From positions 62,001 to 126,000 of the forward strand of contig JADHYV010000029.1 of assembly GCA_027604705.1 (NCBI GenBank): a stretch of 64,000 bases of DNA. The letters run 5' to 3'. The stretch comes from Allomyces arbusculus. Its lineage: Eukaryota > Blastocladiomycota > Blastocladiomycetes > Blastocladiales > Blastocladiaceae. The position numbers and the translations under genes are program-made. Under the pieces are notes generated by a model, which ran no database searches, had not been told where the DNA came from, and worked only from the letters and a program-made list of their open reading frames with translations. This document shows, one piece after another, positions 2,211-37,100 of the stretch. Position 1 is the first letter of the stretch. Each line of letters starts with the position of its first letter.

Positions 2211-4929
2211 ATGGATACGCCAACGACACGCTCGCTGGTCCTGGGGCTCGCGCTCGGCGTAATTCCAATCGCCTCAAACCTCTATCTCGGTCTCAAAACA
2301 GGTTGGGGGTACGTGCGGTCTCTCTACATCTAGTGCGCGCGAGTGGCATCTGGCCGATTCGACCGAAGTTCGGAAAAAAAACTAACACGCCGGCGTGGTT
2401 CGTGGCCTAGCTTTGGGTCTGAGTTTTTCGCCATCCGTACGAATCGGCACACTCTCCTGCGTGGTTCTCCACCGACCAGCCTGCTCCACGGGCTCACAAG
2501 TCGAATCTGCCTCGTCTAGTTCTCGGGTTCCCGCTGCTCCGGTTCGCCGACCGCACCTTCAACGGCGCTGACCACGCGAGCTCCGTGACCCTGCAAGAAC
2601 ACGGCCTGCTCGTGACCGTCTCGGTCGCCGTCTCGAACCTGACCATGTCAGGCTATGTGAATGGGATCCCGGCGCTCTACAAGCTCGGTCTGCTCGACCC
2701 AGCGGCCTACCCGTTGGACATGGCGCGGCTCGTCGTGTGGGGCACGACCGTGGCCTTGGTCGCGTGCTTTGTCGCGCTCGTCATGGCGCCGTGGTTCCTG
2801 AAACGGCGCGATTTACCGTTCCCATCGTCGGTTGGCGCCGCACACTTGTTGCGCCAGTTGCATGCGAATGCCGCCGCGTCGACCGTTGAGGGGGGCGCGG
2901 TGGTCGAGGGGAAGGTGATCCCGCCGCTGGATGATGAGAAAGTCGCACGGAAGCGCCGCGAGAGCGAGGTGCAGCAGAGAACGATGGTGCAGTGCATTGG
3001 TGCGTGTTTGACTGTTTCCCGAAAAACGGAGATGAATATTTGCTAACATGCGAGCGGCGACCGTGATAGTCGGCTCCTTTTTGTTCTTGATGGTCGCGTT
3101 TGCCATCCCGGCCATCAAAGAGTACCACTTGTTCTGGTGGCTCGCTGGTGCGCCGCCGCGCACGGGCCCGCACCCGTCCGTCGGTCCGTTCTCTTCTGCA
3201 CGCTCTGCACCCGTTTTTCTCATCGAGATCTGAACCCGCCGGCCTCCGACCCGATACCACAGGCCTCGCGGCCATCTTCTTCAATATGGACCGGTTCCAC
3301 CTGTTCTTCAGCGTCTCTTTCGCCTTCTTCGGCGCCGGGATGATGATGGGCGTGCGCACGACCACCTCCTTCTTCTTCGGCTCCTTTCTCGCATGGTACG
3401 CGATCGGCCACTGGCTCGTCGAGAGATCTGGGTGGGTGCCCAACCCCTACGACCCGCGGTCGCGTCGCTACTCGTCCCCGACCTCCATGGACCCGTCGTC
3501 CCCCGGCGTGGCCTACTGGCTCCTTTGGCCGGGGATCACGATCCTCGTCACGCACGCGGCGACCGACCTGGTCCTGAACGCCGCCGCGTACCTGATTGCC
3601 CGCGTGCGCGGGACGGCGTCGGCGTCGCGCGCATCGAGTACCGCTGCGGTACCTGACCCGAACGACCTAAAAGCCCCGCCGGTCGTGAATGCAGTCCACG
3701 GGTCACACGACGTGTCCGGGTTTGCCGGGCGGCAGGTGCGCGTGCTCAAGTACGTGGCGGCGCCGATGGCGGTCGCGCTGTGTGCGATTATGACGCAGGC
3801 TACGTTCCGGCTGTCGTTGGGGGTCGCTGGACTCGCGATTGCGTTGGGGGTCGTGTTGACGTATATCGCGACGCTCGCGTCGGCGGTCACGGATATGAAT
3901 CCGTCCGGGACACTGGCCAAGGTCGCCAAGGGGGTGTTGGCGATGGTCCCGGCGACGTCGTTGGCGCAGCGGCAGGTCACGACGGTGGCGGGCGCGATGG
4001 TCGCGGCGGGATTGGTACGTTCGCGGTATGCGAGGAAGGCGGGTAATGGATGCATGCTGACGCGAACCGTGTGATGGAGAATAGTCGTCGCAGACTGTCG
4101 ACCTTGTCAGCAGTTTCAAGCTCGGACAACTGTGCCAAATGAACGTGCTCGCGCAAGGTCCGCCCGTTTCATTCCCCCCTCCTCTCCACCTTCTCCACCC
4201 ATCTCACTCACCCATTCTACACACCAGTACGCACCCAACTCCTCGGCGCGACCCTCGCGGCCCCGCTCACCGCGCTCGTCTTCTCGCTCTACGTGCACGC
4301 ATACCCGTGCATTCTCGCTGAGCGCGACGACGACTGCGCGACGCAGCACGGGTTCTCGCTGACCGCCGCCAATACCTGGAAAGTGTTTGCAATCGCCATG
4401 GCCGATGGACCCGCAGCGATCGCTGCACGAGTTCCACCGTCGGCACTCGCTGCGTGCGGCGTGGCCGCGGCCGCGGTCGTCGTGACGGGGGTGATTAGGC
4501 GGGTGCTGTTGCAGCCGCGGGGGTACGCGTGGATCGTGCCGCAGTGGAATGGTACGTTGGTTCTCGGCATCATGGATGATGGGGGGGGGGGGGGGGATGG
4601 AAACTGATGCGATGATATGTGGTGCGTAGCGATCGGCGTGGCCATGCTGAACCCGCGCACAGATTACGCGTTCGCCGCGTGGCTCGGCGCGCTCGTCTCG
4701 GTCGTTTGGCAGCGGCAGGCGCCGCACGCGCACGACAAGTTGTTGTTCACGGTCGCGAGCGGGTTTATTGCGGGTGAGGGGCTATGGGGGCTCGTTGCCG
4801 CGGTGATGAATATCGGTACGTGCAGCTGGGTGGAATTGGGGTGGGTGGAGGTGGGGTTTAGACTGACACGCGAATGTATGTGTAGTGGGGTTGTCAAACG
4901 GATGGTTGACACGCGCCGGGCTGCCGTGA
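2211..4929 (+). CDS. OPT-family oligopeptide/metal-chelate transporter, multi-exon
   Basis: Integral membrane carrier of the oligopeptide transporter superfamily, which imports small peptides or metal-siderophore complexes coupled to protons. The first exon opens with MDTPTTRSLVLGLALG followed by SNLYLGLKTGWG, the usual first helix and loop of the family. Later exons give VSGYVNGIPALYKLG-type and TDMNPSGTLAKVAKG segments, matching the family's IPAL and D-NP-G regions, and about 12 hydrophobic helices in all. I read about eight exons separated by short introns. Examples are an intron starting after 2999 with donor GTGCGT, one ending before 3286, and a last intron 4816-4885 before a short final exon ending at the stop 4927-4929. 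The second exon near 2.4-2.6 kb is poorly resolved. A run of 16 G lies in the intron at 4551-4627. OPT versus YSL subfamily and the substrate cannot be told by eye. Confidence 0.8.
4581..4596. repeat. G16 homopolymer in an intron
   Basis: Sixteen consecutive G within an intron of the OPT transporter gene. Length polymorphism or sequencing slippage is likely. Confidence 0.9.
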
Positions 4930-5204
4930 TCCACGACGCGCGGAATTTCGTGGTTGGGCGCGAATTGGCGAGGGTAGATAAGGGTAGGCGCAGGTGGAGG
5001 GGTTGGATTGTGCTGGGAACTGGTCAGCTTGCAAATCCAATTGTTTCTAGGCCCTTGGTTGTGGCAGGACTGGGTGGACTGGGTTGAAACCGACGCTGAA
5101 TTCGCATGTGAGGTGCCGAAAAAACAACTCGTAGTGAAAAAACTCTGTGCATGCTGTGTCAACTGGGCGATATTTGTGCCCAGAGAGGGTGGATTTGAGT
5201 GGGA
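4930..5204. other. 3' flank of the OPT gene
   Basis: Short intergenic stretch after the transporter stop. CpG is still present here, and it falls away from about 5205 onward. Confidence 0.5.
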
Positions 5205-7115
5205 CGGACCAAAAGAGACACAATGCTCATGGCACAAAGAAAAATGAGTGCAACCATTTGTTTAAGAGGTTGTAGGGTTGAACCCATGGTATTCCACTTG
5301 CAGGCTGGACGCTTTTTCAGGGAGCTCAATCTCAGCTGCTGTGAACATGGCAAATGTCAAATGGGTAAGCTCAAAGCAAATGACAGATGTGAGTGCTCTG
5401 GAGCAGTGGGCTGTGACACTGGGACATGGATAACTGTCAACCAGGTGGCCATTGACTTTGAAGGCAAAGGTTTTCTCACACCTTATGTATGGATATCTGG
5501 CTGGGCTTGGTGGAAAGAATCTGCTGGACTGCTCTGATGCAGGCTGGAGCTTACTCATTCACTGTTTGTGTGTGGGGGGAGGGGGGGGGTTTCTTCCAAT
5601 TTTTTCAAACCACTGTCTCTTGACCCAGACAAGATCTCGCCTTGCAACCACCCACATCAGAATGGCCAAAAACATTATTTCAATCTGACATGCAATGAGG
5701 GGAGACCACAGGATGTGCTGTTAGAATAGGCATGAGGATCAGGGCAAGCACCACACATTGGAGCACCACTGTGACAAAATGGGCTCAGAGGGGTGATACA
5801 ATCAATACCCCTCCACGCCCATTTCACTTTGTGTCAAGAGATAACTATACATTTCCTCTACACGCTTCTTTACATTGTGCGCCCAGGCTCCATCAATTTA
5901 GCAAGGTAGATGCAACATGTTTTTCATGCTTTGCCAGGACTCAGTTGCTGTATAGCTGTGGACCAAAACCACAATATCACAATTGGAATTATGAGTCAAT
6001 TTCACCAAACAGAATTGTGGTTCTAGTTGTTGAGAAAACTCGGTTGTAAGCCATTTGCATTTTACTCACCAATGATGAATGAGTGAATATATGATAGCAA
6101 TGTCAAGAGGAGCAAAACCAACAAAACAATGAATGAGAGAACTGAAGTGATGTGAGTGGGCATGCAAGTGCACTTGGGTGTAGGCCAAGCATGCCATGGA
6201 GGGGTGTGGGTGCCACCAATGCTGCTGGCAGCAGGGCTGCCTGAGTGGCCCCTACTTGCTGTTCCTGTTCCTGATCCTGTTCCTGTTCTTCCCACCCAGG
6301 TGTCTCAATGCAGAGGCTTTTGCCATCTGAGGCGCCCACCCATTTGTCATCAACAACATGCACATTGGGGTGTTCATGCGTCCACCTGCCCAGCAAGATC
6401 TATGACTTCACATGCCACAATTGCCCACCTGATCTGCAGTCTGGCCATGTCCAACTCATGCACAACAACCCTTGCAACCAATCCTGTCTACCTGCACACG
6501 CATTTCCATCAAATGTGGTTGGCACTCTTCAAGATCTGCAATGATGTGTGGGAGCATGACACATGCATGTATCTACTGACAGATGTGACTGGCAAGTTGA
6601 GCCTCTCCACAGTCCAAAAGTGCATGATTGGTTTGTGCACATTCACATCCAGCATGTCTGCTGACTATCTTGACAAGAGCCTGTGTGCAGGCGAGTCAAC
6701 ATGCCAGGAGTACTCCCTCCAGATTTGTAGAAACTGTTGCAATCTATGGCTGTGAGTACCTGCAACTGCCAATGCCAGCTGAGTGGGCTGTCATTTTGCA
6801 AGAGAATGCAGTATGTGGCTTCCCAGGAATGCTTGGTTTGGTTGGTGCACAGTGGTGGTTGCAATGAGAGCTGTGGTAGTGTTGTTGTTGTTGTTGTGTG
6901 GTGTTTGCAGTGGGAAACCCATTTGGCTATCTGTGGAGGCTATCTGGCAGATTTGGGTCCACTGTTTACCAGAAAGGGTGGATTTTGGCAGATGCCAGCA
7001 ACTGGTGGAGTTGCAAAAGTGGCGGTTGGCACCAAATTTGCCAGAAAGCTGATAAACCCCTGACTGCTGAAGCTATCAGCCATCATCAACATGATCTCCT
7101 CAGCCTTTAAGTTGG
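5205..7115 (+). mobile_element. Decayed PIF/Harbinger DNA transposon in a CpG-starved block
   Basis: Between about 6480 and 6870 two forward frames read as the N-terminal half of a plant-type PIF/Harbinger (HARBI1/ALP1-like) transposase. Visible pieces are VTGKLSLSTVQKCMIG, then SADYLDKSLCAGEST with QICRNCC, and after one frame change EYLQLPMPAEWAVILQEN and GFPGMLG. These follow the family order: a D-TG-K-LS-LQK segment, then SAD-DEY--GEST, EYLR-P, and RGFPGMLGSID. The catalytic DDE half is missing or unrecognisable, so the element is a fossil. The block has almost no CpG (I count one in 6541-6900), unlike the CpG-rich genes either side. Terminal inverted repeats were not found. The limits given are those of the CpG-poor stretch, not proven element ends. 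Sequence at 6880-7100 is not recognised. Confidence 0.7.
5265..5333 (-). pseudogene. Decayed tRNA-Ala(TGC) pseudogene
   Basis: The minus strand aligns along its whole length with the intact tRNA-Ala at 7202-7274. It keeps the TGC anticodon, the GGGTTCAA T-loop region and the AACCTC 3' acceptor half. Wherever the intact gene has CpG in its 3' half, this copy has TpG or CpA: the anticodon stem, the variable region, and both sides of the T stem. The 5' acceptor strand no longer pairs fully with the 3' strand. Both copies point the same way, 1.94 kb apart. Confidence 0.7.
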
Positions 7116-7201
7116 CGCCTGATGTCCAGGCGCAAAACAAGTTGATCAAAACGACGGTTCTATCCCGACAACACCACAGTCATCCTCGCTTTTAGGACTT
7201 T

Positions 7202-7274
7202 TGGAGGTTGCGGGGTTTGAACCCGCGGCATTCCGCATGCAAAGCGGACACTCTAACCACTGAGCTAAACCCCC
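7202..7274 (-). tRNA. tRNA-Ala (anticodon TGC)
   Basis: A 73-nt cloverleaf with no intron. The acceptor stem GGGGGTT pairs with AACCTCC and contains the G3:U70 wobble pair that defines alanine tRNAs; the discriminator base is A73. The D stem is GCTC/GAGT, the anticodon stem TCCGC/GCGGA with loop TTTGCAT, and the T stem GCGGG/CCCGC with loop TTCAAAC. The anticodon TGC reads GCA. The nearest T4 run on the transcribed strand is about 50 nt downstream (7148-7151), so the Pol III terminator is uncertain. Confidence 0.95.
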
Positions 7275-7499
7275 AGTTGTGCTTTGGCCTGAACCTTGTC
7301 TTCTTGTCCAATTACTCACTCTTTGGCTGCGACGCCGACAGAATGACTTGCGCGTGGGAGCCACGCCATATTGACTCACTCACTCCAAAGCTGCCGCTTC
7401 CGGGACGCGCCACCGCCCTTCTGCGGCAGACCGCTTGCAGCCTCGCAGCACCCTCCACAATTCGCAAGCGCGAGGGCGACGAGCAACTGCAGTAGCACC

Positions 7500-9374
7500 A
7501 TGGCCGTGCCCGGCGGCATCGATGATCTGTTCGGCAAGCTCGCGATCCATGCCGTGACCGTCGTCGGCAAGGCCGCGTTTGGACTCGCCGTCAAGCAAGC
7601 CGTCGGCGGGCTCACGGCCTTTGCCAAGCAGAGACTCCTAGTAGGCAGCGGCAACAGCGGTAGCGGAAATGTGCCTGCAGCATCAACCCGCGCTGCGACA
7701 CATGCGACGCTCGGCGCGCTGGAACGACGAGCAGACGGCGGCGACGCGTCAAGCTCAACAACAGGCGACACCGACACCGCAACCGACGCGTCGGCCGCCG
7801 AGCAGCAACGCTTACGCGCCGAATTCGAGCGGCTCGACACGCAGCGGCGGCAACTCGAGCAAAAAGTGGCCATTCTGACACCGTCGATCGACATGATCCA
7901 AGTCGTCTGCGCCAAGTCGAACCATGTCGGCCTGCACGCCGTATTGACCATGGCGCAGGACCTGCACCGAGACCTCGACACGCTCTCGGCGTTTTTGGCC
8001 ACGGCGCTCGGGTCCGACAGCGTGCACTCGGTCTCACTCGCGCAAGTGCACGCCGTGTCTGAACGCGTGCAAGCGATCTTGGCCAAGATCGAGGACTCGG
8101 TGCCGTACTTAAACCTCGCGATCGCCGTGTCCGGCGTCAAGCTCGGCGGTGGGACGGGTAGTGCGGGCGCGCGAGCTGCCGCGCCAGCCAGTGCGTTGTC
8201 GCTCAGTGTCCTGCTCAACGCCTCGGCGCTCCTGCAGCGCGCGGCGCTCGCTGCCGACGAGGCCAACGACGACTCCTCGACCGCGACCGTGCCCATGGCG
8301 TTCCCGTGCCGCGTCTACCGATTGTTCGAGGCCTCGGTCCGCGCCGAGGGTCGACCCAACTGGACGTGGAAACTCGAGCACCTGCGATCGGCCGTGACTG
8401 TGCGGTGGGCCGATCCAACCGTCGAGGGCGCGTCGGGCGCACTCGTGGTCATGGACCGCACGGGCGAGAACGACACGTTACAGTGGGATCTGGCCGATTT
8501 GAAGCGCATGTTGTTCACGGCGACCGGGCGGTTGCTGAATATTCCGGATTCGAGCCCTGGCGCGCCCGTGCTCGTGCTCCACCTCGACGAGTACGTCGCG
8601 CTCGAGATTTTGCCGCCTGACGAGTGGGATCCGACGCCCAGCGAGAGCGAGAGCGACGACGAGGACGACGAGAGCGACTCGAAAAACGACGACTCCAGCG
8701 AATCCAATCCCGTATTCCGCATCCCGGCGACCCCGGTCGGCAAACCCACCGCCACTCGACGCCCCACCCCACCCGCGACCACCACCGACGACGACGAGCC
8801 CCTCCCCGTCTCGCACCAACTCAGTCTCCTCGAAGCCGTCCTCCGACTCATCACCGTCGAGCGCGCGCTCGGCACCCCGCACCTCGCCGTCCCCGACGAC
8901 CTGCTGTGGGTCTACCTCGCCAGCGACCAAATGCCCGACATTGGCTCTGTCGCTGTCGCCGCACCCGTCCCGCTCCCGCCCGTCTACTTGTCCCCCGCGC
9001 CCGCGTCCGCGACGGCGCCGTCACCCGCCGCGTCGAGAAGCCGTCGGTCGGTGGGCCGGTCGCCGGCTCCCGCGCCAGCTGAGCGTGACGCGACCCCGCC
9101 GCCGGTACTAAGACGTAAGTCGCGGCCGTCGCGGCGCGGGCTTGAGCACTTGCAGCAGGTGGAGCGCACGCCGGCGCCGGTCAGGGTGACGAATTTGATG
9201 AACCGGTTCATGCATGCTGCGGAAGCGACGGGTTCGTCTGGCGCGGCTCCTGTGGATGGGGCTGGGGAGAGTAGCACGGAGGTGTCGCCGACGCGGCCGG
9301 CTCGTCGGAGTCGGCGCTCGCAGCGCGGTGTGCGCTCGGCCGAGGTCGATGTGGGCGGCGAAGACGATTTGTGA
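7500..9374 (+). CDS. RanGTP-binding protein, Yrb30-like
   Basis: Single-exon gene for 624 aa. It resembles the fungal RanGTP-binding family typified by yeast Yrb30 (Pfam Ran-binding, PF05508), which binds Ran-GTP and acts in nucleocytoplasmic transport. The start MAVPGGIDDLFGKLAIHAV matches the family's MDDLxxKLxxQA opening. Further on, VAILTPSIDMIQVVCAKSN (about residue 125) and LAKIEDSVPYLNLAIAVSG (about 200) are the conserved helices. A C-terminal third rich in D, E, S and P (about 380-624) is probably disordered. I chose the ATG at 7500 because the family similarity begins there, although the frame is open upstream. The gene converges on the glycosyltransferase gene with about 135 bp between stops. 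Confidence 0.8.
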   Translation: MAVPGGIDDLFGKLAIHAVTVVGKAAFGLAVKQAVGGLTAFAKQRLLVGSGNSGSGNVPAASTRAATHATLGALERRADGGDASSSTTGDTDTATDASAAEQQRLRAEFERLDTQRRQLEQKVAILTPSIDMIQVVCAKSNHVGLHAVLTMAQDLHRDLDTLSAFLATALGSDSVHSVSLAQVHAVSERVQAILAKIEDSVPYLNLAIAVSGVKLGGGTGSAGARAAAPASALSLSVLLNASALLQRAALAADEANDDSSTATVPMAFPCRVYRLFEASVRAEGRPNWTWKLEHLRSAVTVRWADPTVEGASGALVVMDRTGENDTLQWDLADLKRMLFTATGRLLNIPDSSPGAPVLVLHLDEYVALEILPPDEWDPTPSESESDDEDDESDSKNDDSSESNPVFRIPATPVGKPTATRRPTPPATTTDDDEPLPVSHQLSLLEAVLRLITVERALGTPHLAVPDDLLWVYLASDQMPDIGSVAVAAPVPLPPVYLSPAPASATAPSPAASRSRRSVGRSPAPAPAERDATPPPVLRRKSRPSRRGLEHLQQVERTPAPVRVTNLMNRFMHAAEATGSSGAAPVDGAGESSTEVSPTRPARRSRRSQRGVRSAEVDVGGEDDL

Positions 9375-28513: not shown

Positions 28514-29534
28514 CATGAGCTCTCTCAACGCACACGCATTCGACCTTCCTGCACCATTCAATTTTGGCCCATTTCTTGGGCACAGATTCAATTTCTGTCC
28601 ATTCATTGGGCACGGCGCGCAGTAACCAATGTCTCAAATTGTCAACCAATAAAAAGGCATGGTTCCCATTTGTCTCTCTTGGACGGCGCGCGAGAGCAGG
28701 GCGGCGCGTGAGAGCAGAACAGCGCGCGAGAGCAGAACGGCGCGCGAGAGCAGGAGGACGCGCAAGAGCATGACCGTGCGCACGGGGCCAGTGCTGGCAG
28801 GCGGGTCAGTTCATGCAATGCCAGAGCATGGGGCGCGACGACGCGCGCGGCCGCAGCACCGACCAGTCGCTAGATTCCGTCGTCCACAGCAGTAAAACAA
28901 GGAATAAACCCAGCAATAGAGCGGGAGGGAAGGGGTGCGTGCGTGCACGTCAGCACGAGCCAGCAGCAGTTGCATTGCCACCCAACCCCAACAGCCTCCC
29001 CAGGACCACCAGCGGCCTGGCGCCAGTGCCCAGAGGTGCGTACGGCTCTCGGCTATGGCCCTGCGGTATTTAAGCGGGCAAGCGGGTGTGCAGCAGCGGC
29101 GGTGCGGTTGGGTGGTGCTGTGGCAGCAAGTGCTGGTGCTACTGCAGAAACAAACAGCGTGGGCTGGGACTGCAGCAGCCGAGAGTATCAATGTTGGGCA
29201 TCATCTTGCTGGTTTGCGTTTGGTGGTCCATGGGAGTAGCCCAGCATTGGCCAAACCTCCCTGCTCTCAAGCCCTGCTCTCCCAGCTCCAACACGCATGG
29301 TCATTCACCCCTGACACGCGCCACTGGGCCAGTACCATGATTTGACCCAGGTGCGAGCTTGTGCGCACAGCTGGCCAGGCGCAGAACCTGGTTGCCACCC
29401 TAAGGCTGGTTGACATAAAGAGACTATGCACCAAGGCTCCTAGTATTTTTATGTATGTGTGCACCACCCTATCACCATCAACAACCTGGTCCTTCCCATT
29501 CTGTTGCCTGATCCTCACTCAAGCAGCATTGCAC
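28514..29534. other. Intergenic with an 18-bp minisatellite
   Basis: No recognised gene. It contains the minisatellite at 28,682-28,771, and from about 29,100 it grades into the CpG-poor block that holds the decayed ABCC copy. Confidence 0.5.
28682..28771. repeat. Minisatellite, five copies of an 18-bp unit
   Basis: Unit of the form GACGGCGCGCGAGAGCAG, five tandem copies with a few substitutions and no length change. One frame is open through it and gives repeated ARESRT, but there is no other sign of coding. Confidence 0.9.
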
Positions 29535-30250
29535 ACTGGGACCCAATGGACAACAATACTTGGGATGTGACCACCTGCTTCCAGTCAGTGATCATCAACA
29601 GTATATTGCCAGTTGCACTGCTGCTGGTTGCTGGCATGCTGCACCTGATTCAGTTCAGGCGACAGCCTGCAGCCTCCACCAAGCATTGAGGCTGGCATTA
29701 CTGAGCTGAGCTGGTGCATTACTGTCATGGAATCTGTTTGTGCTGTCCAATGCAGAGAAAGCTGACTGTGTTTGCCTGCTAAGGTGGTCATTGCAGCCCT
29801 GATTGCTGTGCAGTTCATGATGTTAGCACTTGCCACTAGTCACCATTCAGCCATCACTGCAACCATTCCCTTAAGGCAAGTTGCTGTGCTGGTGTGTTTG
29901 CAGCAGTCCCAAATTCCATTATGGAAGTTGGGTCCAAACCCTTTGTCCTCACCTATTCTCCTTGGTTGTTTTGGTGGCTCAACAACCATATGTGCTGTGG
30001 GCAAAAGCACATGCTGTGGGCCAATGACCTGTGCTATGTTGCCATGTTGCAGGTGGCTGTGATCAACTACACCAAGTTTATTGCCACCTGGGACTGAGAA
30101 CTTGTGACTGCCAAGGACCCATTGCTGTTCCACATAATCGTTGTTGTGATTGAGCCCACATTTGCATTGGCTGGATTGCTCAAGTGTGTGCAGGACCTGA
30201 TGGCCTTTGCCACAGCTGGTGCTCCTGCAGCAGCCTCAATACCTGCACAC
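29535..30250 (+). pseudogene. Decayed ABCC (MRP-type) transporter fragment, CpG-depleted copy
   Basis: A second copy of the N-terminal part of the ABCC gene at 34.2-37.2 kb, in opposite orientation. Shared pieces are TWDVTTCFQS followed by LPVALLLVAG (29,545-29,640), VVIAALIAVQF (29,785), the intron-containing stretch to 29,950, and ALAGLLKCVQDLMAFA (30,160-30,215). About 330 bp between the second and third pieces, the first transmembrane helices, are deleted. No nucleotide-binding domain is present. Differences from the other copy are mostly CpG to TpG/CpA; I count two CpG in 29,521-30,300. It keeps one reading frame (IVVVIEPTFALAG) that is shifted in the other copy. Confidence 0.75.
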
Positions 30251-31189
30251 ACTGGCTCAACCAAATCAAATTGCAACTGCAAGCTATTCACCTGCTTCAC
30301 AAGTGGAGAAATTGCGTCGATATTGTATCCTTCACCACACAATACCATTACAAATGTCAGCCATCATGCCTTTAATTTCTGGGTCCTGCTGCTGGAGTGG
30401 TGCCATGTTGAAGAGCCCAGCCCAAGGTTCTATGGCCCAATGTCAATGGAGCAGCTGCCCTGTTTTCCGCCAAGCCAAATGGTGCAAACATGTCCCACGC
30501 AAAGGAAGGGACGTAATCCGATGCGATACCAGCAAGGCGCGAAGAGCAATCCCCCGTTGGTGCAACCTGGGCGCTCTGTTGTGGGATTCTCGCTCTGTGC
30601 CATCGGTTGCAGTGAACCCCAACCGGTTGCCAAAAACACGAGCTCAGCCGCATCGGTCGCCACGGATGTGGGCGCAGTCGCGTGAGCCCGCCTGCGTGCT
30701 GCGCCATGGAAGGCGTTTGATGGCGTTTTGTCATAGCCACCGGAACATCAATGAGCGTGAACCAAGGCCAACTTTGCGCTTGCCAGGGCGCTTGTCAGGG
30801 GGACAAGGAAGCACCTGTCAGGAGTGCAGGGCAAGCAAAGAGCAATTCGAACGGATGCGCACAGTGAACGCCCAGCAAGAGAAGCAGTTGGCGCCGCGTC
30901 TGGGCAGCCGCCATCATTCGGTTGTGACGCAGGTTTGCAGCTGGAAAACACGAACACCTTTTCTCGTTCTAGCGTGCCACCCCCAGGTGGAGGAAACGAA
31001 AGTGGTGGTCTATGGAAGGTGATCTGGAGAAGGAATCTCCTTCTCTGAAGAAGGAAAACCGGCACTCGCGACTTTTTAAAAGGGCCGTGCAGCCCACGCC
31101 CTCTTCATCAATCATCCCAGCATCGGTCGCCTGCCTTTTGACTAGACGAGAACTGACCGAGCAAACCAACACCATCAACTGATCGAACC
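30251..31189. other. Upstream region of the P450 gene
   Basis: The CpG-poor decayed DNA ends near 30,470 and normal CpG-rich sequence resumes. The last 170 bp carry promoter-like elements (see 31,027-31,081). No gene recognised. Confidence 0.5.
31027..31081 (+). promoter_or_regulatory. Candidate core promoter of the P450 gene: inverted repeat plus TATA-like box
   Basis: A perfect 8-bp inverted repeat with a 3-nt spacer (GAGAAGGA at 31,027-31,034, TCCTTCTC at 31,038-31,045) lies about 28 bp before TTTTTAAAA (31,073-31,081). The start codon is at 31,190. The repeat resembles a dimeric factor or heat-shock type site; binding is inferred. Confidence 0.4.
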
Positions 31190-34170: not shown

Positions 34171-37100
34171 CTACCGACAACTCCCTGGGCCCTTGTCATC
34201 CTCGACTTTGCCTCCACGGCTGCCTGCCGCCCTCCCAGTCTGACTGCTCGCTGCCCGTCCAGCAATGTCCGAAGACGACGGGAACGTCGTCGTGAGAGGG
34301 GCGCCAGCCTGGCGCAGCGGAGCGACTGTCGCCCACTCAACAATGACGGCCGGTGACGTGCTGCGTCGTTGTCGCGCGTAATCCACAAATCACAACCGCA
34401 AAAATGTTTGCGCTGGAAGCACAGGTGCGCTGCTTTGGCCGTACGCTGCCACGCCCGCCATTGCGCGTGTCCATGCGGCCCAAAGCACGCGTCAAACACT
34501 TGCCGCCCAACCTGCACGTCGAGTGCGCTGAGCGGATCATCGAGCAAGCACGTCGTGCCGCGAATAGACCGTACGAGCAATTCGAGTCGTTTCTTCTGCC
34601 CGCCCGACAGCGAGACCCCCTTTTCGCCGACCAAGCACAGATCGTCGCCCGGCAAGACTGCCAAGTCGAAATCGAGACACGTCGCGCGCACCACGGCCGC
34701 GTACTACTCATCATCGAGTGCCGCGCCAAACAGGATATTATCGCGAATGCTCGCGTTCAGCAGCCACGACTCGTCACTCACGTACGCGAGCGAGCCCACC
34801 ACGTCGACGTGCGGTGCCGGGTTGGCCACCGTTGGCACTGCCCGCATTTCGCCGAGAATCGCCGAGAGCAGACTCGACTTCCCGCCGCCGACTTTGCCAA
34901 TCATGCAGACGAGCTCGTGCGCGAGGAACGTCAGGTCGAGGTCATTGAGGACCGGGGCGGGCGCGGTGTGGTCATCGTTGTCGCAGTTCTTGATCCAGGA
35001 GAATATGCCGCGCACGCGCACGGCCTCGGCCTTGATGATGCTGGACGCGGCGATGGGTGCTGCATGCCGGTGTAGGTACTCGTTGTGCACTTCCTCGGCG
35101 GCCAGGAACTGGTAGATGCGGTTGAGGGAGACTGACGAGTCAACGATCAAGCTGATCACATTGGGCAGGCATGTTCATCGGGAACTGGAGAAGGTTGAAG
35201 AGCGACAGCGAGACAAAGGCCTTAGACGGCGTGAGCTGCTCGCACGACGTCAAGACTAGTGTTGGAGGGTACATCGCGTCAGTCCAGGTCGAAACGCACA
35301 CCTTACACTCACAGACTCGATCCAGCACGTACGGTAGACGGCAAATGTGGCAAACGCGACCGCAAACGGCGTACACATCCAAAAAAGCTCGTCGCGGCAT
35401 TCAGGAATCCGACCTTGCGAATATTGCGCATTTCCTCGTCCCGCACGCGGTCAATTCGGCCAAGGAAGAACTGTTCCCACGCGTAGAGCTTGATCACTTT
35501 GATCCCACTCAGAAACTCGGACGAGCTTGAGTCGGTGGTCCTTGTTCTTCATCTGGTCCTTCTGCATGACGCGCTGCCGCTTGGCCAGGGCCGTATTGAC
35601 GGGAATGATCAAAATCATGACGCGAGTCCAGCGAGGACCGCAGGCCCAAGCTGGGTTCAAAGCAGGGAGTGCGACATGCCGATCAGGAACGGGCCTGACC
35701 AGAGGCCAATGTGCAAGAAGGTCAGGACGTCCGCGAGCTTTTGCACTCGACCGACATGATGTTAACGAGCTGACCCGTCGACGACTGGCTCTTGGCGCTG
35801 AGCGAGAGCCGCAACGCCTTGTGGTAGACGGCGGCCGTCAACGCCGTGCGCAACTGCGTGCCAGCGACCAAGCACAGCCGGAAGTACTGGTTCAGTAACA
35901 TCGACTGCGTCATGGCGACGAGGATCATGCCGACGGCAACGGCGACGCCTTGCGGGACCGACTCGTGTGCGATCAGCTGCTGCAGGAGCGCCGGCTGCGC
36001 AAAGGCCATCAGGTCCTGCACAAACTTGAGCAATCCGGCCAACGCAACGTGGGCCCAATCACGACGACAATTGCGCAGAACAACGACAGCCCTTGGGGTT
36101 CACGAGCTCGCGGTTCCCGGCCGCGGTAAGCTTGGCGTAATTGGCCGCGGTCACCTGCGACGTGGCAAAGCGGTACAAGTCGTCGGCCCGTAGCACGTGC
36201 TTTAGCCCGCGGCGCATTGGGTCGTTGAGCCATCGAACGACAGCCGCGAGAAGATGTTGGCCGTCTTTTCCGGGCTCGCCGCGCCTGCGACGACGTGTTC
36301 ATCGTCATCAACGACCTGTGCGCCCGCATCGCCGCCGAGCTGCTCGTAATTGCCGCGCGACTTGGGAAGTTCGAGAACAAACGAGGCAAAGTAGAGCGCC
36401 GAGGTTGTGATGGCGAGCGCCGTGAGCGGGCCCAGCGGCACGTGGTGGAAGGCCAAGTGCTTGACGTTGAGCAGCGACGTAAAGAAACAGACGAGCCAGA
36501 TGACGAGGAGGATGTCGCCGACGCGCGCGACCGCGTATGTTCCAGAGCGAGGCCGAGAGCCTGTCGAAAAACGGGTGACTGGGTGAGCATGTCGTGTTCG
36601 GACCCGTCTTCTCTAATGAAATTTGGGACCGCTGCAAACATACCAGCGCCGCGACTTGCCCCGCGAGAATGGTTGCAGTTACGACCGAATGGTCGTTGGT
36701 GGCGAGCGCGAACGCCGCGAATTGCACGGCGATCAGGGCCGCAATGACCACCTAAACAGAGAAAGACAGTCAGCTTATACGCCACTGACAGCACACGCGG
36801 ATTCCGCGACAGCAACGCACCAGCTTGGCCCAGTAATGCCGGCCCCAATGCTCAGCCGAGACCGCAGGCCGTCGACTGAGTTAAATCATGCTCAGCGTGC
36901 TGACGACCAGCAGCAGCGCGATCGGCAAATTGTTATTGATTGCAGACTGGAAGCAGGTGGTCACGTCCCAGGTATCGTTGCCCGTCAGGTCCCAGGGCCC
37001 GAACCGCCGCGCGCCGAGCACCAGGCGGCGGGTGCGCCTTGATCGTTTCCATTGGTTGGCAAAGGAATCGGCAGGACGGGCGTTGAAGTTGGCACCAGCG

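What the first reader, a model, noticed from the sequence alone, without database searches (positions are those of the whole stretch)
5265..7274. A tRNA-Ala and its deaminated twin bracket the Harbinger relic
The minus-strand sequence 5265-5333 aligns throughout with the intact tRNA-Ala(TGC) at 7202-7274, in the same orientation. CpGs of the intact gene's 3' half are TpG or CpA in the left copy, while the anticodon is kept. The intact gene, next to the same block, escaped. This gives a natural before/after pair for the decay process and marks where silencing stopped.
Basis: seen in the sequence. Interest (0 to 1): 0.7.

Follow-up and report, generated by a model that had tools for sequence, protein, structure and literature searches.

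The report
Old dead tRNA-Ala beside living one
A worn-out tRNA gene sits at one edge of a stretch of mutation-decayed, probably fungal DNA and a working tRNA gene of the same kind lies at the other; the dead copy is real but old and is not a before-and-after twin of its neighbour, and several other decayed stretches in this genome also lie between copies of one tRNA gene.

Summary
The left copy is real. Window 5265-5333 (-) is a specific relic of tRNA-Ala(TGC): local score 25.5, against at most 17.5 in 1000 block shuffles and 16.5 for other tRNA types. All five CpGs of the intact gene are TpG/CpA/TpA in it and the anticodon letters are kept, but 12 of 18 aligned substitutions lie outside CpG. 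It fits canonical tRNA-Ala genes elsewhere slightly better than its neighbour, so it is no clean before/after twin. No Harbinger signal was found. In a second copy of the locus (contig C14) decay lies on both sides of the same tRNA, whose five CpGs are kept, so the gene is not simply where decay stopped. Best reading: an old tRNA-Ala pseudogene in partly repeat-derived DNA hit by CpG-directed C-to-T decay, the working gene kept by selection. A wider pattern emerged: 5 of 9 intervals found between same-type tRNA copies have CpG o/e below 0.5, including inverted-repeat Trp and Arg pairs. A better before/after pair in the window is a decayed ABC-transporter duplicate (58 of 69 CpGs transitioned).

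The parts
5265..5333 (-). tRNA-Ala(TGC) pseudogene (relic): 48 of 71 aligned positions identical to the canonical gene, one base missing in the T loop, 16 of 21 cloverleaf pairs left
   Evidence: no Rfam tRNA match (E up to 5) and no ARAGORN match
7202..7274 (-). intact tRNA-Ala(TGC) gene
   Evidence: Rfam RF00005 70 bits, ARAGORN; identical to the C14 copy except one base
5206..7115 (.). CpG-poor block: 11 CpGs between the CpGs at 5205 and 7116; two distant fragments of part of it on contig C11 and a second copy on contig C14
5209..5320 (.). segment absent from the C14 copy of the locus; holds most of the relic
   Evidence: BLAST pieces 4709-5208 and 5321-6193; alignment
5322..5335 (-). 5-prime stub of the relic that the C14 copy still carries (C14:503-516), 9-10 of 14 nt like tRNA-Ala genes
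4608..5087 (+). left neighbour: open frame with the C-terminal part of an OPT oligopeptide transporter (further pieces of it in frames 3091-4074 and, weakly, 4143-4607)
   Evidence: Pfam PF03169: E 4.9e-8, 1.7e-14 and 0.0019, the last below the curated cut-off
7371..9374 (+). right neighbour: open frame with RanGTP-binding domain
   Evidence: Pfam PF05508, E 3.2e-31
29150..30550 (.). second CpG-poor block of the window (o/e 0.22): decayed relative of the stretch at 35976-36995; comparator
35976..36995 (-). CpG-rich relative (o/e 1.27) of that block; ABC transporter transmembrane domain in the overlapping frame 35725-36099; the frame 36205-36612 gave no Pfam family

Best explanation
The left copy is an old tRNA-Ala(TGC) pseudogene. 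A second tRNA-Ala gene once stood near the present one (now 1.87 kb away); it lost function and decayed by ordinary point mutation, a one-base loss in the T loop, and loss of five of six CpGs (counted against the canonical gene) through the same CpG-directed C-to-T process, most likely cytosine-methylation-linked and RIP-like, that emptied the surrounding, partly repeat-derived block of CpG. The decay of the block probably predates the split between this locus and its copy on contig C14. The right-hand gene keeps its CpGs because it is under selection as a working tRNA, rather than because it stops a spreading front. Shown: the relic, its specificity, the CpG loss, the C14 comparison. Inferred: the order of loss of function and CpG loss, the methylation step, selection on the intact gene.
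For: Specific tRNA-Ala similarity. T loop one base short, 16 of 21 pairs left, no tRNA model match. All five CpGs of the neighbour lost in the relic. The block is CpG-poor in both copies of the locus (6 shared CpGs in 5321-7110) with 138 of 1722 other positions different, which suggests CpG loss before the split. In C14 the tRNA keeps all 5 window CpGs while 6 of 7 CpGs just upstream of it became TG/CA/TA. C14 keeps the relic's 5-prime stub, so the relic probably predates the split and C14 lost the rest. The genome holds several cytosine-5 DNA methyltransferase-like genes (11 PF00145 matches on 6 contigs). The same signature is seen on a duplicated ABC-transporter stretch: of 69 CpGs in the CpG-rich relative, 58 are TG/CA/TA in the decayed one, 1 is kept, 10 are other, and 83 of 519 other positions differ. 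Comparable twins: a Met relic on C18 and a degraded Ala twin on C3.
Against: The excess of change at CpG within the relic alone is weak against the canonical gene (p 0.08). The upstream stretch 7275-7400 and the downstream stretch 7111-7201 also differ much outside CpG between the two copies (22 of 108 and 23 of 67). The stub match in C14 is only 9-10 of 14 nt (binomial p 0.002 to 0.0003), so an insertion into the window copy is not excluded. The score difference between canonical genes and neighbour is small and one shared base favours the neighbour. Flanks of the relic do not clearly match flanks of any tRNA-Ala gene; 3-prime flank scores against C14, C3 and C44 are marginal (3, 10 and 8 of 200 shuffles as good), so the route of duplication is not shown.
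Confidence: 0.7

Rival explanations
1. Transposons of this genome prefer to insert beside tRNA genes; the block is such an insertion between two neighbouring tRNA-Ala genes, later decayed at CpG, with the left gene dying by accident.
For: 15 of 124 tRNA-adjacent 500-bp bins (62 genes) have CpG o/e below 0.5 against 3 of 123 window bins (Fisher p 0.006). Parts of the block and of the C12 tRNA-Arg spacer have distant relatives elsewhere in the genome. tRNA-gene targeting is known from yeast and Dictyostelium (PMC5006619, PMC5911963; search listing).
Against: No transposase match in the 10 frames scanned and no inverted repeat at the block ends; the Trp and Lys spacers are single-copy at the sensitivity used; no fixed distance or side relative to the tRNA is apparent; the background is one window only and the bins are not independent.
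Confidence: 0.2
2. The pair of similar tRNA sequences is itself the trigger: a RIP-like, homology-triggered process mutates the DNA lying between two close tRNA copies (linker mutation), and only tRNA copies under selection survive.
For: 5 of 9 same-type tRNA intervals have CpG o/e below 0.5 (4 of 8 without the given one); of three different-type intervals one was too short and two have 1.06 and 1.38. In the C16 Trp pair the 367-bp arms have o/e 1.03 and 1.06 and the 728-bp spacer 0.08, and no other copy of the spacer was found. In Neurospora single-copy DNA between close repeats can be strongly mutated (PMC4858203, passage).
Against: Four of nine same-type intervals are not below 0.5 (1.14, 0.77, 1.26, 0.56), and a tenth, next to a 27-nt tRNA-Ser fragment, is in normal DNA. 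tRNA copies of 73 bp are below the 155 bp that sufficed in Neurospora (PMC4858203, passage). The arms, the actual repeats, are not CpG-poor. A reanalysis of Neurospora crosses saw the base-composition shift in the repeats and not in the linker (PMC12543289, passage).
Confidence: 0.1
3. The left copy is a tRNA-derived retroposon (SINE or retro-pseudogene) inserted into the block.
For: The 112-bp segment 5209-5320, which holds most of the relic, is missing from the C14 copy.
Against: No other copy in the genome even at E up to 10; no clear target-site duplication in the C14 alignment (read by eye); the relic's 5-prime end lies outside the missing segment and is shared with C14.
Confidence: 0.07
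4. The intact tRNA gene is a chromatin barrier or locally protected site that stopped the spread of silencing and decay.
For: In the window the decay ends about 86 bp short of the gene (CpG positions), and the 3-prime flank 7111-7201 keeps 5 shared CpGs in both copies; tRNA genes are reported as barriers in fission yeast (PMC2040200, search listing).
Against: In the C14 copy CpG-poor DNA lies on both sides of the same gene (o/e 0.13 and 0.37 in the adjacent 500 bp; 6 of 7 upstream CpGs lost).
Confidence: 0.06
5. The left similarity is chance.
For: No tRNA model reports it.
Against: Score 25.5 against at most 17.5 in 1000 shuffles and 15.0 in the rest of the window; Ala-specific.
Confidence: 0.02

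Closest known systems
RIP-decayed 5S rRNA pseudogenes of Neurospora crassa (zeta-eta region; recalled) and rRNA pseudogenes of filamentous ascomycetes (PMC5555474, search listing only)
   Same: Small structural-RNA gene copy killed while working copies stay intact; C-to-T transitions among the changes (for Neurospora recalled)
   Different: Here the signature is CpG, the gene is a tRNA, and most substitutions are outside the signature; RIP itself is not demonstrated
CpG-type C-to-T decay of transposable elements in fungi (PMC4352252, abstract)
   Same: Dinucleotide-specific C-to-T loss, CpG being one of the reported signatures
   Different: Here part of the decayed DNA is a host-gene duplicate or single-copy at the sensitivity used
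Ordinary tRNA pseudogenes from local duplication (general knowledge)
   Same: Same strand, same isoacceptor, nearby, with damaged loops and pairs
   Different: Lies in a CpG-decayed block, 1.87 kb away
tRNA-gene-targeting retrotransposons of yeasts and Dictyostelium (PMC5006619, PMC5911963, search listing)
   Same: Partly repeat-derived DNA beside tRNA genes
   Different: No element and no fixed insertion distance found here

Membership tests
Functional tRNA-Ala gene (left copy) | Recognised by tRNA covariance model or ARAGORN | tested here: not met
   No tRNA match up to E 5; ARAGORN finds only the right gene
Functional tRNA-Ala gene (left copy) | Intact cloverleaf | tested here: not met
   16 of 21 pairs, one base missing in the T loop
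tRNA-Ala(TGC) pseudogene | Specific similarity to tRNA-Ala over the gene's length | tested here: met
RIP-like CpG decay | C-to-T transitions concentrated at one dinucleotide | tested here: met
   Block bins o/e 0.04-0.29 against 1.17 for the window; ABC duplicate 58 of 69; within the relic alone only p 0.02 to 0.08
RIP-like CpG decay | Acts on repeated DNA | tested here: inconclusive
   Both window blocks have relatives; no relatives found for the Trp and Lys spacers
RIP-like CpG decay | Needs a specific cytosine methyltransferase and acts before meiosis | not testable with these tools
   Only presence of PF00145 matches shown; subfamily not determined
Harbinger transposon (block) | DDE_Tnp_4 transposase | tested here: not met
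   10 of the 68 stop-to-stop frames listed for 4000-7500 were scanned, none at E up to 1; the only PF13359 match in the genome search is C11:377825-378034, and the block's frames of 40 aa or more do not match that locus. Strong decay could hide a relic
Harbinger transposon (block) | Terminal inverted repeats | tested here: not met
   Four internal inverted pairs of 14-24 nt, none at the block ends; decay could hide short ones
tRNA-derived SINE (left copy) | Dispersed copies with the same head and body | tested here: not met
   Only itself at E up to 10
tRNA chromatin barrier (right gene) | Silenced DNA ends at the gene | tested here: not met
   CpG-poor DNA ends 86 bp short of the gene in the window but lies on both sides in the C14 copy; chromatin itself was not testable

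The most novel reading that the evidence does not exclude
In this genome close copies of one tRNA gene are the trigger for CpG-directed decay of the DNA between them: the homology search reads tRNA-sized or few-hundred-base repeats, the intervening single-copy DNA is mutated, and tRNA genes survive as CpG islands unless redundant, in which case they become relics such as the one at 5265-5333 and the Met relic on C18.
Probability: 0.1. Interest if true: 0.75.

Novelty: new member of a known kind. Interest (0 to 1): 0.4.

Why it matters
The relic itself is ordinary. What could matter is the setting: decayed DNA recurs between copies of one tRNA gene, including two inverted-repeat pairs where the arms keep CpG and the spacer has little. 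If the link is causal it would separate homology recognition from the mutated target in a natural genome; if it only reflects insertion preference it is a known phenomenon in a new place. The C29/C14 pair and the ABC-transporter duplicate give before/after comparisons of CpG decay.

Tried and rejected
Chance similarity (rejected). A SINE family (no other copy). A segmental duplication carrying the neighbour's flanks (flanks of left and right copies do not match: 113 and 193 of 200 shuffles as good). An early thought that the window gene's T-loop A was a fresh CpG loss was dropped because the five other tRNA-Ala genes also have A there. Harbinger identity. Weak Rfam hits to other families in the block (E 1 and 2.2), on C3 (0.81) and on C18 (0.22 and 3.6), all below gathering score, were taken as chance. 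Literature searches for tRNA pseudogene plus repeat-induced point mutation, tRNA genes plus CpG depletion plus transposable elements plus fungi, and tRNA genes plus repeat-induced point mutation plus inverted repeats plus CpG returned 0 papers in the held library. Rows dropped: the truncated tRNA hit C146:1-58 was left out of the 62-gene counts; a 27-nt tRNA-Ser fragment (L103, CpG-normal surroundings) was left out of the nine intervals, with it the count is 5 of 10. Limits: the tRNA list is the 63 scored of 477 candidates, so it is incomplete, and a degraded tRNA on C3 was missed by it; the search for twins looked 1.5 kb to each side only, so relics farther away, like the given one at 1.87 kb, would be missed; the CpG background is the window alone.

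Full report
Check of the observation. The window is part of contig C29 of a 25.9-Mb, 197-contig genome held without a name. Its genes (OPT transporter, RanGTP-binding domain, homogentisate dioxygenase, HSP70-like) and a frame matching solved UDP-GlcNAc pyrophosphorylases suit a fungus; that is inference, the organism was not identified. The gene at 7202-7274 (-) is a good tRNA-Ala(TGC): Rfam 70 bits, ARAGORN. The left sequence 5265-5333 (-) is not reported by ARAGORN, nor as a tRNA by Rfam even at E up to 5. It nevertheless aligns over 65 columns with canonical tRNA-Ala at score 25.5; 1000 shuffles of the block reach at most 17.5, and the best place in the rest of the window scores 15.0. Against the 62 tRNA genes that ARAGORN recognised among the 63 scored Rfam hits, the tRNA-Ala genes score 23.0 to 25.5 and the next type, Thr, 16.5. 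So the relic is real and it is tRNA-Ala.

What has changed in it. In the locally aligned part, 6 of 10 CpG positions are C-to-T or G-to-A against the neighbour and 12 of 54 other positions differ; against the canonical gene it is 6 of 12 and 12 of 52 (Fisher p 0.02 and 0.08). All five of the neighbour's CpGs are lost as TG, CA or TA. Over the full length 48 of 71 aligned positions equal the canonical gene, 16 of 21 cloverleaf pairs remain and one T-loop base is missing. Two thirds of the substitutions in the aligned part are therefore not of the CpG kind. The relic scores 25.5 with the genes on C44, C46, C58 and C3, 23.5 with C28, and 23.0 with the neighbour and its C14 copy. The neighbour and C14 share an extra D-loop base and a TpG where the other genes and the relic have CpG; against this, the relic shares with the neighbour, C14 and C3 a T where the other four genes have A. 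On balance the pair is not parent and child.

The second copy of the locus. Window 4709-7400 has a homologue at contig C14:1-3330 at 85 to 93% identity in three pieces; C14 begins there, so the match may run on. C14 lacks 5209-5320, most of the relic, and has 752 bp more at window 6193. It keeps the relic's 5-prime stub, 9 to 10 of 14 nt like tRNA-Ala, so I think the relic is older than the split and was partly deleted in C14; insertion in the window copy is less likely but open. CpG fates: in the desert 5321-7110 both copies are already poor (6 shared CpGs; other positions 138 of 1722 different). In 7111-7201, next to the gene on its 3-prime side, 5 CpGs are shared and 23 of 67 other positions differ. 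In the tRNA all 5 window CpGs are kept. In 7275-7400, upstream of the tRNA, 6 of 7 window CpGs are TG/CA/TA in C14, with 22 of 108 other positions different. CpG o/e in the 500 bp on either side of the C14 tRNA is 0.13 and 0.37. So in C14 decay lies on both sides of the gene and spares the gene and a short stretch 3-prime of it. This speaks against the gene being the place where silencing stops, and for selection on the gene, perhaps with short local protection.

The block. Ten stop-to-stop frames from the block and its edges, of 68 listed for 4000-7500, gave no Pfam family at E up to 1. The only Harbinger-type transposase match in the genome search is elsewhere, on C11, and the block's translated frames do not match it. 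No inverted repeat was found at the block ends. Two fragments on another part of C11 show that part of the block is repeat-derived. Its class stays unknown.

A wider pattern. Among 62 tRNA genes with up to 1.5 kb of flank, 15 of 124 adjacent 500-bp bins have CpG o/e below 0.5, against 3 of 123 window bins outside the finding (bins of paired genes and of the C29/C14 copies are not independent). Nine intervals between same-type tRNA copies or relics within 3 kb were found (the given one by the finding itself, since the search for twins reached only 1.5 kb): Lys on C16 0.48, second Lys on C16 1.14, Trp on C16 0.34, Arg on C12 0.21, Arg on C10 0.77, Arg on C34 1.26, Ala with degraded twin on C3 0.56, Met with relic on C18 0.44, and the given Ala 0.15. 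Five are below 0.5, four of eight without the given one; each of these five is at or below the 1.8% tail of window stretches of the same length. Of three different-type intervals one was too short and two are 1.06 and 1.38. The C16 Trp pair is an inverted repeat with 367-bp arms, 98% alike, o/e 1.03 and 1.06, and a 728-bp spacer at 0.08; the C12 Arg pair has 208-bp arms, 91% alike, o/e 0.92 and 0.89, and an 849-bp spacer at 0.21. For the Trp and Lys spacers no other copy was found at the sensitivity used; the Arg spacer has three distant fragments. The Met relic scores 27.0 with its own type while the best other type scores 14.0 in that locus; Rfam does not report it.

How it most likely works. 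CpG-directed decay acts on duplicated or repeat-derived DNA. The clearest case in the window is the block at 29150-30550, a relative of the ABC-transporter stretch at 35976-36995, about 5.4 kb away: of 69 CpGs of the CpG-rich stretch in the aligned pieces, 1 is kept, 58 are TG/CA/TA and 10 other, with 83 of 519 other positions different. That the CpG-rich one stands for the parent is assumed; another relative lies on C7. The genome carries several cytosine-methyltransferase-like genes, so a methylation-linked, RIP-like route is plausible but not shown. CpG signatures of transposon decay are reported in fungi (PMC4352252, abstract). Single-copy DNA between close repeats can be mutated in Neurospora, where 155 bp of homology was enough (PMC4858203, passages), and a later reanalysis of crosses saw the composition shift in the repeats but not in the linker (PMC12543289, passages). 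I therefore hold local duplication plus redundancy plus regional CpG decay as the best account of the relic, insertion preference near tRNA genes as the main rival, and tRNA-pair-triggered decay as the bold reading.

Verdict.

Noticed in passing
window 29150-30550 and 35976-36995: A CpG-poor block is a decayed relative of part of an ABC-transporter gene about 5.4 kb away: of 69 CpGs in the CpG-rich stretch 58 are TG/CA/TA in the block, 1 kept, 10 other. A much cleaner before/after pair than the tRNAs.
   Followed up: partly
L088 (contig C16:283042-286113), 1312-2773: Two tRNA-Trp genes in a 367-bp inverted repeat (98%) with a 728-bp spacer of CpG o/e 0.08 for which no other copy was found.
   Followed up: partly
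L092 (contig C12:330535-333607), 1370-2632: Two tRNA-Arg genes in a 208-bp inverted repeat (91%) with an 849-bp CpG-poor spacer.
   Followed up: partly
L041 (contig C18:291652-294723), 1159-1212: Relic of tRNA-Met(CAT) on the same strand near an intact tRNA-Met, in CpG-poor DNA.
   Followed up: partly
L007 (contig C3:733674-736745), 1664-1732: Tandem tRNA-Ala twin with a shortened anticodon arm; ARAGORN names it Val(cac), Rfam 52.3 bits; it keeps several CpGs.
   Followed up: partly
L004 (contig C46:77567-80638), 1-1400: A tRNA-Ala gene with strongly CpG-poor DNA (o/e 0.03-0.32) on its upstream side; no second tRNA found within the 1.5 kb held.
   Followed up: no
L042 (contig C14:1-10000), 1381-2132: 752 bp present in C14 and absent at window 6193; few CpGs; identity unknown.
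   Followed up: no
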